DNA of 64,000 nucleotides from a virus, in the IMG/VR virus record IMGVR_UViG_3300017917_002401, positions 25,128 through 89,127 of that record; one strand, written 5' to 3'. Under the pieces are notes generated by a model. The model made no database searches. It had not been told where the DNA came from and was given only the letters and a program-made list of their open reading frames with translations. A program made the translations under genes and the position numbers. Positions 10,615 to 52,658 of this stretch are shown here, one piece after another. Position 1 is the first letter of the stretch; each line of letters starts with the position of its first letter.

Positions 10615-11799
10615 ATGAATTGGTTTACCAAAAGTTACGACTGGATGCGCGAAAAGCTTAATCCAGCACAAGATCGTATTGCCTATCAAGAAGGTTTGTA
10701 CATAGGCAGTACACAAAAGATTACTTACCAACAAGCTTTTCAAAAGCTTGAGGTTGTTAACCGCAGCGTATCAATGCTGGTTAACGCATGCGCTAGTCTA
10801 GACTACGATGTAAAAGACAAACAAAATGATGGAGTTGTTGTAGGTGTTCGTCAAAAGACCCTAAACAACTTACTTAATTTCAAACCAAACCCATATCAAT
10901 CAATACAAGAATTTCGTCAAGCAATTTTCCAAGACTTGGTAATTGAGGGTAACGTATTTGTTTATTTTGATGGTACTTTTATGTACCACTTGCCGGCACA
11001 AAACGTACAAATTCTAACAGATACCAAAACGTTTATCCGCGGATATCGTTACATGGGTACTATTGATTTCAAAGAAGAAGACGTATTTCACTTCCGTGAT
11101 TTACACGCACAATCTATCTACCGTGGCAGCAGCCGCTTAGAAAGTGCACAGCGTAGTATTGATATACTATACGCCATGGAAGATTTCCAGGAAAAATTCT
11201 TTGATAATGGTGCGATTTTTGGTTTAGTGCTAACAAGTGATAATACATTATCACAAGTTGCCAAAGAAAAAACAATATCCAACTGGGTACAGCGTTATAA
11301 CGCTAAGAATGGTGGCAAGCGTCCAATCATTCTTGACAGCGGTTTAAAACCTACTCAAGTTGGTCAAGGCACGTTTAAAGATCTGGACTTTGACGAGTCT
11401 ATTAAAACGCATAATGATCGTATTGCGGTAAGTGTAGGCGTTCCACCAATCCTTCTAGACGGTGGTAATAACGCTAACATTAGTCCTAACCTACGATTGT
11501 TTTATCTGGAAACTGTAATGCCAATTGTTAGAAAATATGTTTCTAGCCTTGAGCGTTATTTCGGATATGATATTGAGGCAATTACTGCTAATGTATCAGC
11601 TTTACAGCCTGATATCAAAGAAATTGCACAATATCACGCAACTCTTGTAAATGGCGGCATTATCACTCCAAATGAAGCCAGAAAAGAACTTCGTTATGAG
11701 CCTATACCGGGCAATGACGACTTAAGAGTACCTGCTAATATTGCGGGTAGTGCTGCAGATCCATCGCAAGGTGGAAAACCGCCGCAACCAAAGGAGTAA
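10615..11799 (+). CDS. Portal protein (HK97 type)
   Basis: Protein of 394 residues, normal for the HK97 portal family. Family traits visible are the N-terminal membrane-proximal helices, FRQAIFQDLVIEGNVFVYF, the VFHFRDLHAQSIYRGSSRLES stretch in the middle, PPILLDGGNNANIS, and the C-terminal NEARKELRYEPIPGNDDLRVPANI, which is diagnostic. Forms the dodecameric ring at the head vertex through which DNA passes and to which the connectors attach. It starts 10 bases after the HNH gene and is followed one base later by the protease-capsid gene. Confidence 0.95.
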   Translation: MNWFTKSYDWMREKLNPAQDRIAYQEGLYIGSTQKITYQQAFQKLEVVNRSVSMLVNACASLDYDVKDKQNDGVVVGVRQKTLNNLLNFKPNPYQSIQEFRQAIFQDLVIEGNVFVYFDGTFMYHLPAQNVQILTDTKTFIRGYRYMGTIDFKEEDVFHFRDLHAQSIYRGSSRLESAQRSIDILYAMEDFQEKFFDNGAIFGLVLTSDNTLSQVAKEKTISNWVQRYNAKNGGKRPIILDSGLKPTQVGQGTFKDLDFDESIKTHNDRIAVSVGVPPILLDGGNNANISPNLRLFYLETVMPIVRKYVSSLERYFGYDIEAITANVSALQPDIKEIAQYHATLVNGGIITPNEARKELRYEPIPGNDDLRVPANIAGSAADPSQGGKPPQPKE

Positions 11800-11800
11800 T

Positions 11801-13747
11801 ATGGTAGATAAAAATAAAATCCTTTACGTGAACTCTGCGTTCAGTGTAAAGGCACTACCAAGCGACTCAGGTGATGGTACCGGATCGGTTACTATCGAAG
11901 GCTACGCAAGTACCAACGATGTTGACCGTCAAGGTGACGTTGTACCAACAGGTGTATGGGAAAAAGGTTTAACGAATTACTTAAATAATCCAGTAATTCT
12001 TGCTTACCACGACCATAGTATGCCTGTGGGTAGAATGATTGAACACAAGATCGATAAAAAAGGTCTATGGATCAAAGCAACTATCTCCGAAGCTGCTGGT
12101 AATGTTTACAATTTAGTTAAAAACGGTATTCTAACCGCGTTTAGTATTGGCTTCCGTGTTATGGATGCCGAATATAAAAGTGATGCAGAAGTATTCTTAA
12201 TCAAAGATCTAGAACTACATGAAATTAGTGTCGTGTCAGTTCCTGCTAATCAAAACACTTTATTTAGTCTTTCTAAGGCATTTGAGACAGCCGAAGATTA
12301 TCAGTCATTTAAAATGCAGTTTGCAACCAGTAGCGACTCAGCTAAAGGGCTAGAAGCCTCCGGTACCGCAAAAAGCGATATTACAAAGGAATGGAACATG
12401 GATCCAAAAGATTTAGAAAAAATGTTAGCTGATGCTGCTGCCAAGGCTGCTCAAGCTGTTGTTGAAAAACAAGCTGCTGAAAAAGCTGCTGCTGACAAAG
12501 CTGCTGCTGAACAAGCTGAATTTGATGCTCGCGTTAAGGCTGCCGTTGCTCAGGTAACAGTTGGTCAAAGCGGTGCAGAAAAGCTACTAGCTGACGTAGA
12601 AAAGAAATTAGCTGATGCTCAAGCTGAACAAGCCAAAGCCCTAGAAGGCCTACAAGCCGAACTAAAGGCCAAGTCTGTTGAACTAGAAGCTATCACAAAG
12701 AGCCGTATGCAATTTGGCGATACAAAGCCAGGCGAAATGGCTTATGCAGAAAAAGAAAAGGCAGTTCTATTAGCTAAGGCTATGGGCCGCCGTGTTGAAG
12801 ATACCAAGTTTGGTGCCGAAATGGTCCAAAAGTATGGTCAACACTTACCAAGCGCTACATGGGAACTAGAAGTTAATCTAAACCTAGAAGCTGAAGTTCG
12901 TCGTCGTTTAGTTGTTGCTCCTCTGCTACGTCAGATCACAATGCAAACTAACGTTATGACAATCCCAGTAAACCCAGAAGCAGGCGTTGCATCTTGGGTT
13001 ACTAACGCTCAGTTTGGTAGCTCTAACAGTTCCGGTGGTTCTAGTTCTACAACTGGTTTCACACCAGGCGTTGGTTCTCCGCATGCATTAAAAGAAATTA
13101 CCCTAAACGCTTACAAAGTAGCTACAAACGAATACCTAGCATACGAAGAAGAAGAAGATTCTCTAATCGCTCTAATGCCAGTTATCCGTGAAGCTATGGT
13201 ACGTCGTTTAGCACGTGCTGTTGACCGCGCATTCCTACGTGGTGCAGGTTCTGGTAGCGACCCAGTTAAAGGTCTAGCAGGTTACGACGCAGTTGCTGAC
13301 GTAACTCCAAGCGCAGCTAGCGGTGTTGTTACCGTTGCTAATATGCGCGCTATGCGTAAGAGCCTAGGCGGTTGGGGTCTAGATCCAGCTGAAATCGTTT
13401 ATGTTGTTTCTCAAGACGTATACTACGATCTATTAGAAGATACAACATTCCAGACAATGAACCAAGTTGGTCCAGCTGCTACTTTACTAACTGGTCAAAT
13501 CGGTTCTATCGGTAACAGCCCAGTTCTAGTATCTGCTGAATTCGACAGCAAGGCTAGCGGTGCTCTAGGTGCTATCGCCTTTGCTCCAGCTAACTTCATC
13601 GTTGGTTCTCAGCGTGGTATCCGTGTTGATACACAAGAGCTAGTAGAAACTCAGCGCCGTGTATTCGTAGCAAGCCTACGTACAGGTATGACACAACTAA
13701 CTACTAACCTAGGTAGTGGTGTTGGCAAGCTAGTTTACGCTGCTTAA
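11801..13747 (+). CDS. Fused prohead protease, scaffold and major capsid protein
   Basis: 648 residues from ATG 11801 (AAGGAG 5 bases before). Residues 1-160 are an HK97-family serine prohead protease: ILAYHDH with candidate catalytic His70/72, AFSIGF with Ser115, and ELHEISVVSVPANQN. Residues about 200-300 are an Ala/Lys/Glu-rich coiled coil like the HK97 delta scaffold. Residues about 301-648 are the HK97-fold capsid (WELEVNLNLEAEVRRRL..., C-terminal RRVFVASLRTGMTQL). An internal AAAGGA and in-frame ATG at 12398 (Met200) would make scaffold-capsid alone. Codon use becomes strongly biased (CTA for Leu) over the capsid part. A strong stem-loop follows. Confidence 0.95.
   Translation: MVDKNKILYVNSAFSVKALPSDSGDGTGSVTIEGYASTNDVDRQGDVVPTGVWEKGLTNYLNNPVILAYHDHSMPVGRMIEHKIDKKGLWIKATISEAAGNVYNLVKNGILTAFSIGFRVMDAEYKSDAEVFLIKDLELHEISVVSVPANQNTLFSLSKAFETAEDYQSFKMQFATSSDSAKGLEASGTAKSDITKEWNMDPKDLEKMLADAAAKAAQAVVEKQAAEKAAADKAAAEQAEFDARVKAAVAQVTVGQSGAEKLLADVEKKLADAQAEQAKALEGLQAELKAKSVELEAITKSRMQFGDTKPGEMAYAEKEKAVLLAKAMGRRVEDTKFGAEMVQKYGQHLPSATWELEVNLNLEAEVRRRLVVAPLLRQITMQTNVMTIPVNPEAGVASWVTNAQFGSSNSSGGSSSTTGFTPGVGSPHALKEITLNAYKVATNEYLAYEEEEDSLIALMPVIREAMVRRLARAVDRAFLRGAGSGSDPVKGLAGYDAVADVTPSAASGVVTVANMRAMRKSLGGWGLDPAEIVYVVSQDVYYDLLEDTTFQTMNQVGPAATLLTGQIGSIGNSPVLVSAEFDSKASGALGAIAFAPANFIVGSQRGIRVDTQELVETQRRVFVASLRTGMTQLTTNLGSGVGKLVYAA
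12385..12400 (+). promoter_or_regulatory. Internal ribosome site and start codon for the capsid precursor
   Basis: AAAGGA (12385-12390), 7 bases, ATG 12398-12400, in frame with the long gene (codon 200) and exactly at the protease/scaffold junction. Predicted product is 449 residues beginning MDPKDLEKML. Confidence 0.65.
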
Positions 13748-45985: not shown

Positions 45986-47119
45986 ATGAAAAAACTTGTA
46001 TTAGTAGTTGCATTAGTATTTGGCAATGCTGTTGCCCAAACTACTTATGATTCAACAACCTTAGTAGATACAAATAATACCAGTAATTCAACAAGTACTG
46101 TAACCAGTACTAATACTACAAATAGTAACAGTACCAGCACAAGTACTAGTAACGTTACTACAACAAATAATAATACCAGTACCACTTCCAATACTAACTA
46201 CAATGTTAATAGCGGAACCCAAACAGTAAATAACAATAATGTTAATAGTGGTACAATGACGTATAATAACAATAACGTCAATAGTGGTACTATGACCTAC
46301 AACAATAATAATGCCAGTACGTCTTCAAGCGTATCCACTAATAATAATATTAATAGTGGTACAATGACGTATAACAATAACACCACTTCTACTAATACAA
46401 ACTATAACGTCAATACAGGTACTATGACGTATAATAACAATAACGTTAATACAAGTACCTCAACCAGTACTAATACAAATAATAATATTAATACTGGTAC
46501 AATGACGTATAATAATAACAATGCTAGTACAAGTACAAGCACTGCTGTTAATACCAATACTAACACTAACATAAATCAAAGTGCAAGTACCAGTACCAAT
46601 ACTAATATTAATCAGAACCAATCTGTTAATACCAATGTAAATCAAAACATTCAAAGTGGTGAAGTAACAAACAAAAACTTGAATGAAAGTGTTATTACTC
46701 AACGTGTAATTCAACCACCTCCAACCGCGGTAGCGCCTGCTATGTTATCCGGTGGTAATGCTGACTTGTGTTCTACTGGCAGTAGTGGCAGTGTACAAAC
46801 CCAAGTATTTGGTGTTAGCAGTGGCGGTACAATTCGTGATATGAATTGTGAACGACTAAAACTAAGCAAAACACTATACGACATGGGTATGAAAGTTGCG
46901 GCAGTTGCTACAATGTGTCAGGATCGCCGTGTGTTTGATGCTATGATGCAAGCGGGAACACCCTGTCCTTATGAAGGCATGATTGGCGAACAAGCTAAAG
47001 CTGCCTGGGACTCAAATCCTGAGAAGGTTCCTCAGTTAGAGAAGGAAAAGTTAGATGACACGTATAAAAAAGTGGGTATTGGCGCACTGCTTGGCATTAT
47101 TGCTCATAAACTTTTCTAA
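45986..47119 (+). CDS. Exported Asn/Thr-rich repeat protein, 377 aa
   Basis: Signal peptide MKKLVLVVALVFGNAVAQ. Residues about 25-230 are almost pure Asn, Thr and Ser, with at least six NxGTMTYNNNN-type repeats separated by TSTSTN spacers. The C-terminal 130 residues are a normal-looking domain (NADLCSTGSSGSVQTQVFGV, NCERLKLSKTLYDMGMKVAA) with paired Cys and a final hydrophobic helix (IGALLGIIAHKLF). The repeat may form amyloid-like or beta-helical material at the surface; this is a guess. Its end overlaps the next gene by 65 bases. Composition differs from every other gene here. Confidence 0.8.
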   Translation: MKKLVLVVALVFGNAVAQTTYDSTTLVDTNNTSNSTSTVTSTNTTNSNSTSTSTSNVTTTNNNTSTTSNTNYNVNSGTQTVNNNNVNSGTMTYNNNNVNSGTMTYNNNNASTSSSVSTNNNINSGTMTYNNNTTSTNTNYNVNTGTMTYNNNNVNTSTSTSTNTNNNINTGTMTYNNNNASTSTSTAVNTNTNTNINQSASTSTNTNINQNQSVNTNVNQNIQSGEVTNKNLNESVITQRVIQPPPTAVAPAMLSGGNADLCSTGSSGSVQTQVFGVSSGGTIRDMNCERLKLSKTLYDMGMKVAAVATMCQDRRVFDAMMQAGTPCPYEGMIGEQAKAAWDSNPEKVPQLEKEKLDDTYKKVGIGALLGIIAHKLF

Positions 47120-48753: not shown

Positions 48754-49317
48754 ATGGCAGATAACAAAGACGTTAATGCTAAGATAGATGCGGCCGAAGC
48801 AGCCGTACATAAATATGCAAGTAAAGATACTGTTATCAGTATTGGCGGATATGAATTTACTCCAGCTAAACTGATGGTAGCCTTTACACTAGTATCTTCA
48901 ATGCTTGGTGGTTTATATGGCACTTTTGAGGTGTATAAAGATTATCAAGGTATGAAGAAGAAAATAGCAGAATATATCTCACCTGATCTCAGCGAGTTTG
49001 ATAAACGATTGGCTGTTATTGAGCAAAACAGTGCGAAAACTTCTGATTATACTCGTGATATAAAGAATGATCTTAAAAATGATTTACGTCGTAATGAAAC
49101 AGTAACTGAACAAATTGAGCGTAGTGTTAAACAAGCTCAACGTGAAACAGATGCTGACTTAAAAACTGTGCAAAAAGATCTTCGCGCAAACTTAGACCGT
49201 AATCGTGATGATATGGATAAACTAAAACGCGACATAGATTCTAAACTGGAAAAGATTAATAGAGACGTAGATACAAAGATTCAAAAAGCTATAGATAATC
49301 CTTTAGCTAATAAGTAA
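48754..49317 (+). CDS. Membrane-anchored coiled-coil protein, 187 aa
   Basis: A cytoplasmic N-terminus (MADNKDVNAKIDAAEAAV), one hydrophobic helix at about 39-56 (LMVAFTLVSSMLGGLYGTF), then a long charged coiled coil to the end (IEQNSAKTSDYTRDIKNDL, ERSVKQAQRETDADL). It opens a block of three such proteins before the holin-like gene. No family is named. It might be part of a membrane complex with 49320-49823 and 49836-50384. Confidence 0.7.
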   Translation: MADNKDVNAKIDAAEAAVHKYASKDTVISIGGYEFTPAKLMVAFTLVSSMLGGLYGTFEVYKDYQGMKKKIAEYISPDLSEFDKRLAVIEQNSAKTSDYTRDIKNDLKNDLRRNETVTEQIERSVKQAQRETDADLKTVQKDLRANLDRNRDDMDKLKRDIDSKLEKINRDVDTKIQKAIDNPLANK

Positions 49318-51020: not shown

Positions 51021-51063
51021 TTGACCTAACAAGCAGGGCCTGGTATAATATATACTCAGGCCC
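51021..51063 (+). promoter_or_regulatory. Promoter with inverted repeat before phoH
   Basis: TTGACC (51021-51026), 17-base spacer, TATAAT (51044-51049). GGGCCTG (51036-51042) and CAGGCCC (51057-51063) flank the -10 symmetrically, like an operator. Confidence 0.85.
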
Positions 51064-51089: not shown

Positions 51090-51776
51090 ATGGCAAGTGG
51101 TAAAAAAGCTAGACGTGGTAAAGTTGTTTCTGCCAATAGTAATCCGGTAGAATATGGTTTTCGTGATGTAAAACCGTTAAACTTTATTCAAGGCGAATAT
51201 TTAAGAGCTATACAAGAAAATGATATAATTTTCGGAATTGGCTCTGCTGGTACAGGTAAAACTTATGTTGCTGCTACTTATGCAGCGGGTGAGTTGTTTC
51301 ATAGACGCGTAGAGAAAATAATTCTCACAAGACCTAATGTAGAAACAGGTCGCGGCTTAGGATTTTTACCAGGTACTTTGGAAGAAAAATATGCCCCTTA
51401 TCTAGACCCATTTGATCAGGTTTTTACAAAAAGCCTAGGAAAAGGTTTTTATGAGTACGCGCTAAAAAACAGCAATATTGATCCTAAACCGCTGGGATTC
51501 ATGCGAGGGGCAACCTTTGATAATTGCATTGTATTAGTAGACGAAGCTCAAAACGCCACTCGTGAAGAAATGAAAATGCTCTTAAGCCGTATTGGTAAGA
51601 ATTGCAAAATGATTATCAGCGGAGATGTTGACCAGTCGGATATCCCAGATAGCGGGTTAAGTGATGCGGTAAAACGTTTAGAGCATATTGAAGGCATTGA
51701 AGTTGTACGATTTATGGATGATGATATTGTTCGTAGTCGTATGTGTAAACAAATTATTTTAGCATACAAGAATTAA
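51090..51776 (+). CDS. phoH: PhoH-like ATPase
   Basis: 228 residues, the usual length of phage PhoH-like proteins. Walker A GSAGTGKT (51-58), RPNVETGRGLGFLPG with the loop typical of the family, and Walker B IVLVDEAQN (about 147-155). PhoH-like proteins are predicted RNA/DNA-dependent ATPases; the gene is common in aquatic phages and its role in infection is not settled. It has its own promoter with a dyad and an AAGGA ribosome site. Confidence 0.95.
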   Translation: MASGKKARRGKVVSANSNPVEYGFRDVKPLNFIQGEYLRAIQENDIIFGIGSAGTGKTYVAATYAAGELFHRRVEKIILTRPNVETGRGLGFLPGTLEEKYAPYLDPFDQVFTKSLGKGFYEYALKNSNIDPKPLGFMRGATFDNCIVLVDEAQNATREEMKMLLSRIGKNCKMIISGDVDQSDIPDSGLSDAVKRLEHIEGIEVVRFMDDDIVRSRMCKQIILAYKN

Positions 51777-51777
51777 A

Positions 51778-52620
51778 ATGGCTGATTTAAACCTAAAACC
51801 AACGGAAGGCATGGCCTCCGCAGCTCGTAGAGCACTAAAATGGAAAGAAGAAGGTAAGCCAGGAGGTACTGCCGTTGGATTAGCCAGAGCACATCAGCTA
51901 GTTAAACAGGAGACCTTAAGTGAGCGTACAGTTCTTCGTATGTACTCATTTTTCAGCAGACATGAGCCCGACAAACAAGCCACAGGATTTAATAGTGGCG
52001 AAGAAGGTTATCCTAGCAAAGGTAGAGTAGCCTGGGATTTGTGGGGCGGTGATGCAGGGTACAGTTGGAGTAAAACAAAGCGTGATCAAATTATGCGCGC
52101 CAGAGAAGGTAAAGTACTTGTTATTACAAACGCTTTAGCACTAGGAAATACTATGGAAGACTTAATTAATTATTTGAAATCAGCGTTTGCTAGTGAGTAT
52201 GCTTTTGCACTAAAAGCACAAAATTTTCACTGGAACGTAGAGGGCGATGATTTCCCTCAATTGCATGCACTATTTGAGCGTATCTATGACGAAGTATATG
52301 GCAGTATTGATGATTTTGCAGAAAACATTCGCAAGATACAAGCATATACTCCAGCAAGTTTATCAGCACTAAATAAAATCAGTGCTGTAGGTGGAATAGA
52401 TCAAATGCCTATGTATTGTCACGATATGTTACAAAATTTGCTAACAGATAGTGAAAATATGGAACAAATGTTTGCTATTGCCTATGAAAAAGCAGATGCT
52501 AATAAAAAGTACGGTTTAGCTAACTTCTTGGCAGATCGTCAAGATGCTCATGCAAAACACAGCTGGATGCTACGCGCCACATTAGTGGTTGACGAAGATG
52601 AAATGACTGGTAATGACTAA
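51778..52620 (+). CDS. Fusion of a phage domain with a Dps-like ferritin, 280 aa
   Basis: Residues about 1-105 form a domain seen in many phage proteins (GMASAARRALKWKEEGKPGG, RMYSFFSRHEPDKQATGF, GRVAWDLWGGDAGYSWSKTK); I know the sequence type but not a proven function. Residues about 125-275 are a Dps/ferritin-like four-helix domain with ferroxidase residues His151, His163, Asp178 and Glu182, spaced exactly as His51, His63, Asp78 and Glu82 in E. coli Dps. The product may store iron, bind DNA or protect it from oxidation. It follows phoH by one base and ends at the convergent terminator. Confidence 0.9.
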   Translation: MADLNLKPTEGMASAARRALKWKEEGKPGGTAVGLARAHQLVKQETLSERTVLRMYSFFSRHEPDKQATGFNSGEEGYPSKGRVAWDLWGGDAGYSWSKTKRDQIMRAREGKVLVITNALALGNTMEDLINYLKSAFASEYAFALKAQNFHWNVEGDDFPQLHALFERIYDEVYGSIDDFAENIRKIQAYTPASLSALNKISAVGGIDQMPMYCHDMLQNLLTDSENMEQMFAIAYEKADANKKYGLANFLADRQDAHAKHSWMLRATLVVDEDEMTGND

Positions 52621-52622
52621 TA

Positions 52623-52658
52623 AAAAAGCCCCTATAACTTGCGTTATAGGGGCTTTTT
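52623..52658. terminator. Bidirectional terminator between the converging blocks
   Basis: AAAAAGCCCCTATAAC (52623-52638), TTGC loop, GTTATAGGGGCTTTTT (52643-52658): 16 perfect base pairs with T runs on both strands. Confidence 0.97.

What the first reader, a model, noticed from the sequence alone, without database searches (positions are those of the whole stretch)
51778..52620. Phage-encoded Dps ferroxidase fused to a phage-specific domain
The four ferroxidase residues (151, 163, 178, 182) are kept with exact Dps spacing, but the protein has a 105-residue N-terminal domain known only from phages. In the virion-gene operon it could protect packaged or host DNA from oxidation, or sequester iron. 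Dps bound to DNA is normally compact; the extra domain would change the shell.
Basis: partly seen in the sequence, partly recalled or inferred. Interest (0 to 1): 0.6.

Follow-up and report, generated by a model that had tools for sequence, protein, structure and literature searches.

The report
Phage Dps iron protein with head-module domain
A freshwater phage carries an iron-oxidising Dps protein joined to a small helical domain that other phages attach to their capsid-building proteins; a large group of other freshwater phages carries the same pair inside the capsid-maturing protease itself, which suggests that phages use iron chemistry to protect their DNA at or near the phage head.

Summary
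ORF 51778-52620 (280 aa) is a genuine two-domain protein. Residues 126-270 are a Dps domain with an intact ferroxidase quartet (H151, H163, D178, E182), kept in 166 of 167 phage Dps domains compared. Residues 1-112 are a confidently predicted helical domain (here 'LWGGD') with no PDB fold match.

Two context claims fail. The domain is not phage-only: it occurs as a free ~105-aa protein on bacterial chromosomes. The gene is not in a virion operon: phoH and this gene have their own conserved sigma70-type promoter and a terminator.

New here: (1) LWGGD and Dps were linked at least three times independently. (2) In about 50 freshwater viral contigs a single ORF reads LWGGD-Dps-HK97 prohead protease, between portal and major capsid genes, with the ferroxidase site intact in all 52 compared. 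I found no report of this in the papers searched. (3) An invariant internal Met may also yield free Dps.

Best explanation: a Dps ferroxidase tethered by LWGGD to phage DNA or the assembling head, limiting Fenton damage. The Dps identity is near certain. The tether target, oligomeric state and iron activity are inferred, not shown.

The parts
51021..51049 (+). sigma70-type promoter TTGACC-17-TATAAT of the phoH / LWGGD-Dps unit
   Evidence: 11 of 12 consensus bases; a match of 11 or 12 bases at nearly the same distance upstream of phoH in 24 of 36 distinct phoH loci; TTGACN-17-TATAAT occurs 6 times in the window against 0.09 expected
51036..51063 (.). inverted repeat GGGCCTG-14-CAGGCCC straddling the -10 hexamer, probable operator
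   Evidence: arms change together in relatives (GGTCTGC/GCAGACC and others); not present at the other five consensus promoters of the window
51090..51776 (+). phoH, conserved upstream partner gene
   Evidence: Pfam PhoH E=1.9e-68; 76 of 80 related phoH loci have an LWGGD gene at once or shortly downstream
51778..52113 (+). LWGGD domain, residues 1-112 (helical, basic, pI 9.8)
   Evidence: PHROG 2859; AlphaFold pLDDT 95.4, pTM 0.86; no PDB fold match, 63 viral matches at E<=0.001; charge
52114..52152 (+). linker, residues 113-125, low confidence in the model
   Evidence: residues 113-121 pLDDT below 50
52143..52146 (+). AGGA, Shine-Dalgarno-like, 6 nt before the internal ATG
   Evidence: duplex energy -4.2, reached by 8% of in-frame internal ATGs in the genes tested
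52153..52155 (+). ATG of Met126, possible second start giving free Dps; Met invariant in all fused relatives
52153..52617 (+). Dps domain, residues 126-280 (acidic, pI 4.5)
52228..52230 (+). codon of ferroxidase ligand H151
52264..52266 (+). codon of ferroxidase ligand H163
52309..52311 (+). codon of ferroxidase ligand D178
52321..52323 (+). codon of ferroxidase ligand E182
52623..52658 (+). terminator hairpin, 16 pairs, A-rich before and T-rich after, so it could act on both strands

Best explanation
The gene encodes a tethered Dps. SHOWN by sequence and structure prediction: a C-terminal Dps domain with a complete ferroxidase site, joined by a disordered linker to a basic, independently folded LWGGD domain; the two have been joined or placed side by side repeatedly; the gene is a phoH partner with its own promoter. 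INFERRED: the Dps domains assemble into the usual cage and oxidise and store Fe2+, so that Fe2+ and peroxide do not make hydroxyl radicals. LWGGD domains on the outside of the cage hold it to its client, which is phage DNA, either free in the infected cell or as it enters the prohead. The Dps domain is acidic (pI 4.5) and lacks a basic tail of its own, so the basic LWGGD domain would replace the DNA-binding tail of E. coli Dps. An internal start at Met126 may add undecorated subunits, giving mixed cages. Overall role: protection of phage DNA during intracellular replication or packaging.
For: Dps identity and ferroxidase site. Purifying selection on both domains. Same fusion in three close relatives and in a second lineage with a different Dps. 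At least two NTD-only fusions plus a separate protease clade on the Dps tree; the window clade's sister L165 has phoH, Dps and LWGGD as separate neighbouring genes. Unfused pairs on the same strand (L098, L099, L174) or convergent in 12 LWGGD-only loci. LWGGD-Dps inside the prohead protease, between portal and capsid genes, in 49 full-length ORFs. LWGGD on proteases, portals, capsid and XkdF proteins of many phages. Charge split between domains. Internal start.
Against: No biochemical data. LWGGD has no known function and no PDB fold match, and several cellular or protease-linked members are neutral or acidic (pI 4.5-6.9), so DNA binding is not a family-wide property. The phoH partnership could mean that LWGGD serves PhoH rather than DNA or the head. 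The Shine-Dalgarno signal at Met126 is only moderate (8% of in-frame internal ATGs are as strong) and weak in L004 and L009. The promoter does not tell the time of expression.
Confidence: 0.5

Rival explanations
1. Head-targeted ferroxidase: LWGGD is a head-assembly module, so LWGGD-Dps is packed into the prohead as an internal virion protein and guards packaged DNA, or carries iron, in the particle.
For: LWGGD is mainly a module of prohead proteases, portals and capsid polyproteins; LWGGD-Dps is the N-terminal half of the prohead protease in about 50 contigs, with the ferroxidase site intact in 52 of 52.
Against: In the window the gene lies about 38 kb from the portal and protease-capsid genes and shares a unit with phoH, under its own promoter; the window protease-capsid ORF 11741-13747 has no LWGGD, which occurs once in the genome. 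Domains fused to proteases may be cut off and lost. No virion proteome exists.
Confidence: 0.27
2. Host-takeover iron manager: a soluble Dps that lowers free iron and peroxide in the infected cell, with LWGGD serving only to dock it to PhoH or its RNA or protein partners; DNA and virion are not involved.
For: Near-invariant phoH-LWGGD gene pair with a conserved promoter and operator-like repeat. Free phage Dps genes are common in freshwater viral contigs. Published suggestions for gut and Lactobacillus phages that Dps raises host tolerance to oxidative stress (PMC8008677; PMC6669764), and ferritin among freshwater phage ROS defences (PMC6802176).
Against: Does not explain the independent joining of LWGGD and Dps inside head proteases, in a different gene neighbourhood (portal and capsid).
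Confidence: 0.18
3. The fusion has no function of its own: two neighbouring genes lost a stop codon, and the internal start still makes ordinary Dps; LWGGD-Dps is a by-product.
For: Invariant internal Met with Shine-Dalgarno-like sequence in the window clade and in L005/L006; unfused neighbours in L098, L099, L174, L165.
Against: Fusion arose at least twice and once more in the protease group; both domains are under purifying selection in the fused state; the internal signal is weak in L004 and L009.
Confidence: 0.05

Closest known systems
Dps / miniferritin family (PF00210; P. aeruginosa PA0962 8ff9, HP-NAP 1ji4/4evd, S. aureus 2d5k)
   Same: Four-helix bundle with short BC helix, ferroxidase quartet with identical spacing, closest sequence and fold matches.
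   Different: 105-residue folded N-terminal domain in place of a short tail; acidic Dps part; encoded in a phage beside phoH.
Phage-encoded free-standing Dps (PHROG 3636; gut Gratiaviridae and Lactobacillus phages, PMC8008677, PMC6669764; Proteus and Aeromonas phages)
   Same: Same domain, same likely chemistry; hundreds of relatives in viral contigs.
   Different: Those are one-domain proteins; no LWGGD domain and no protease.
LWGGD module, PHROG 2859 (no Pfam family), on prohead proteases, portals, capsid polyproteins, and as a free bacterial protein
   Same: Same domain by sequence and model.
   Different: Here its partner is Dps and its neighbour is phoH; function unknown everywhere.
HK97-type prohead protease S78 (PF04586) carrying LWGGD-Dps, L224, L229, L295-L359; UniProt A0A6J7WVS4 ('DNA-binding protein Dps', 498 aa) may be one
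   Same: Same LWGGD-Dps order in one polypeptide.
   Different: Protease domain follows; gene lies between portal and capsid; the window protein has no protease.
Encapsulated ferritin-like proteins of encapsulins (PMC11202242, title and abstract seen)
   Same: Works-like analogy: ferroxidase delivered into a protein shell.
   Different: Encapsulins are cellular compartments; cargo is not fused to a protease. Kinship not tested.

Membership tests
Dps / miniferritin | Ferroxidase ligands H, H, D, E in helices A and B with Dps spacing | tested here: met
   window and all 10 fused members; 166 of 167 overall
Dps / miniferritin | Four-helix bundle with BC helix and no fifth C-terminal ferritin helix | tested here: met
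   helices 126-153, 159-186, 195-201, 214-241, 245-269, then only a 4-residue turn; Dps structures, rmsd 1.2-1.5
Dps / miniferritin | Dodecameric hollow cage | not testable with these tools
   Only a monomer could be modelled
Dps / miniferritin | Fe2+ oxidation and mineral storage | not testable with these tools
   Needs the purified protein
Dps / miniferritin | DNA binding (in some members, through basic tails) | tested here: inconclusive
   Dps part acidic (pI 4.5), LWGGD part basic (pI 9.8); binding itself not testable
LWGGD module (PHROG 2859) | Conserved R37-A38, R61-H62, D65, G82, W86, W89-G90-G91-D92 | tested here: met
Virion (head) protein | Encoded within the head gene cluster or fused to a head protein | tested here: not met
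   Window gene is 3' of phoH, downstream of the lysis region, with its own promoter; met only in the protease-fused relatives
Virion (head) protein | Present in purified particles | not testable with these tools
   No virion proteome; no cultured phage with the fusion found
HK97 prohead protease | S78 protease domain | tested here: not met
   Window protein has none; relatives L224, L229, L301 and L349 have it

The most novel reading that the evidence does not exclude
Tailed phages build ferroxidase into their heads. LWGGD is a head-entry module, and LWGGD-Dps, either free as in the window or as the front half of the maturation protease, ends up inside the prohead, where Dps removes Fe2+ and peroxide or stores iron next to the packaged genome. 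This would be an encapsulin-like iron compartment in a virus.
Probability: 0.27. Interest if true: 0.85.

Novelty: new variant of a known kind. Interest (0 to 1): 0.62.

Why it matters
Phage Dps proteins are on record as host-stress genes. The repeated joining of Dps to a module of capsid-assembly proteins, and above all an intact Dps inside the prohead protease of many freshwater phages, points to iron and peroxide chemistry at or in the phage head. That would be a new kind of genome protection in a virus and a natural counterpart of ferritin-loaded encapsulins. It also gives a first handle on the LWGGD domain, widespread in phages and bacteria with no known function or fold match.

Tried and rejected
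Chimeric assembly or missed stop: rejected; same fusion in L003, L084, L164 and, with another Dps lineage, in L004-L010. Degenerate Dps: rejected. LWGGD phage-specific: rejected (chromosomal neighbours that look like ruvB, ruvA and purL by eye). Virion operon: rejected for the window. A known fold for LWGGD: none in PDB, no family in Pfam or NCBIfam. The C-terminal part X of the 213-230 aa LWGGD-X proteins as half a ferritin: no Pfam support; probably a tblastn over-extension. Weak Ferritin match at 48754-49314 (16.8 bits, below cut-off): probably a coil artefact. A cultured phage with the fusion: none found; Limnohabitans phage DC31 has LWGGD near its capsid gene, but no Dps match was seen there. 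Literature on phage Dps joined to a protease or to this domain: none in the held library; preprints and most subscription papers were not searchable. HiPIP-like reading of a Cys motif beside LWGGD (L229, L036, L057): no Pfam support, left open.

Full report
OBSERVATION. The ORF 51778-52620 (280 aa) exists as described. Residues 131-270 match Pfam Ferritin at E=1.5e-19, PHROG 3636 at 3.6e-24 and solved Dps proteins (8ff9, E=1.6e-16; HP-NAP and others). The AlphaFold model (53 sequences, mean pLDDT 88.6) shows helices 126-153, 159-186, 195-201, 214-241 and 245-269, the Dps order with its BC helix; Foldseek returns Dps crystal structures, many at rmsd 1.2-1.5. H151, H163, D178 and E182 are present with the stated spacing. 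In 167 phage Dps domains compared, 166 keep all four, at identities to the window down to 22%. Within the window clade, dN is 0.04-0.13 for most pairs while dS is saturated. The site is under selection.

THE N-TERMINAL DOMAIN. Residues 1-112 match PHROG 2859 (unknown function). Modelled alone on 36 sequences it gives pLDDT 95 and pTM 0.86, five helices, no PDB match better than E=3, but 63 viral matches at E<=0.001: prohead proteases, portals, XkdF proteins, a capsid fragment, ParB and TUDOR proteins, and one 'DNA-binding protein Dps'. I call it LWGGD after its most conserved motif. In annotated phages it lies on the protease or capsid polyprotein or the portal and as a free small protein in PaBG beside topoisomerase genes. 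It is not phage-only: a genome scan found it on many bacterial contigs, often as a free protein of 100-140 aa, in Neorhizobium and Arachnia next to an Hva1_TUDOR gene.

LOCUS. The gene follows phoH directly. Of 80 related phoH loci, 76 carry an LWGGD gene downstream: alone (121-130 aa), with an unrelated C-terminal part (about 212-224 aa), or fused to Dps. A consensus promoter TTGACC-17-TATAAT lies 69 nt upstream of phoH. In 36 distinct related loci the best promoter in the 150 nt upstream scores 12 of 12 in 20 and 11 of 12 in 4, nearly all at -69 to -73, against about 8 in shuffled sequence. An inverted repeat straddles the -10 hexamer and its arms change together; none of the other five such promoters of the window has it. 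A 16-pair terminator follows the gene. So phoH and LWGGD-Dps form their own unit after the lysis region. 'Virion operon' is not supported. The timing is unknown: consensus promoters also precede structural genes.

DPS AND LWGGD MEET AGAIN AND AGAIN. Fused: the window, L003, L084, L164; and, with a different Dps, L004, L005, L006/7, L008, L009/10. The second group also has an extra, convergent Dps gene. Unfused: phoH-LWGGD-Dps on one strand with overlapping frames (L098, L099, L174), phoH-Dps-LWGGD (L165, the window clade's sister), and a convergent Dps beside LWGGD in 12 LWGGD-only loci. The Dps tree needs at least two origins of the NTD-only fusion and places the protease-fused group apart.

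DPS IN THE HEAD PROTEASE. Two MAG contigs (L224, L229) hold one ORF reading LWGGD, Dps, Peptidase_S78. A viral scan with L224 gave a set with 49 full ORFs of this kind (L224 and L229 included), 9 LWGGD-Dps ORFs cut by contig ends and 6 Dps-protease ORFs (some cut at a contig start; two, L297 and L299, without a recognisable LWGGD domain). Where both flanks are held, the gene lies between portal and major capsid genes. All 52 of their Dps domains that could be aligned keep the ferroxidase quartet. Longer ones tested also carry Hva1_TUDOR. None was found in cultured phages, and the papers searched do not describe it. Known from papers: free Dps in gut and Lactobacillus phages, ferritin among freshwater phage ROS defences.

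MECHANISM. Shown: Dps identity, intact site, selection, repeated linkage to LWGGD, presence in head proteases. Inferred: cage formation, iron oxidation, tethering. LWGGD of the window is basic (pI 9.8) and the Dps part acidic (pI 4.5), so LWGGD is the better candidate for holding DNA; but several relatives of LWGGD are neutral or acidic, and its association with head proteins makes head docking a serious rival. An internal Met126 is invariant in all fused members, in a variable linker, with AGGA or AAGGA 6-7 nt upstream in the window clade and L005/L006; at the window the internal signal is stronger than that of the first start, which directly follows the phoH stop. It would let one gene make tethered and free subunits. 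This is suggestive only: 8% of in-frame internal ATGs score as well.

VERDICT. The core observation is right, two of its context statements are wrong, and the surroundings are more interesting than the finding: a new combination of known domains, with a wider pattern that makes ferroxidase chemistry at the phage head testable.

Noticed in passing
L224:2543-4123, L229:3542-5257, L295-L359: Single ORFs LWGGD-Dps-prohead protease between portal and capsid genes in about 50 viral contigs, largely freshwater by my reading; longer ones add a TUDOR-like domain and a further ~120-aa domain.
   Followed up: yes
window 51021-51063: Near-perfect sigma70 promoter with an inverted repeat across the -10 whose arms covary among relatives: probably a repressor-controlled phoH cassette.
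   Followed up: partly
window 1847, 2090, 10122, 18615, 32995, 51021: Six TTGACN-17-TATAAT promoters against 0.09 expected: the phage seems to rely on the host's main RNA polymerase for structural genes too.
   Followed up: no
window 11741-13747: Prohead protease and major capsid protein fused in one ORF (S78 and Phage_capsid matches).
   Followed up: no
L229:3542-5257, L036:1163-2011, L057:5539-6327: A Cys-rich segment (C-x2-C ... C ... C-x2-W) beside LWGGD, looking like a high-potential iron-sulfur motif but without a Pfam match; DSL-LC01 annotates such a protein next to an LWGGD protease.
   Followed up: partly
L235:3704-4303, L275:3676-4345: Chromosomal LWGGD genes directly after an Hva1_TUDOR (DUF2945) gene; the same two domains also meet in phage protease polyproteins and a Vibrio phage small gene annotated DUF2945.
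   Followed up: partly
L009:6884-7390 (-): The extra convergent Dps of this contig has Phe in place of the second ferroxidase His, so a phage may pair an active with an inactive Dps.
   Followed up: no
window 45986-47119: Low-complexity protein rich in T, S and N repeats (NVNSGTMTYNNNN) between endolysin and further lysis-region genes.
   Followed up: no
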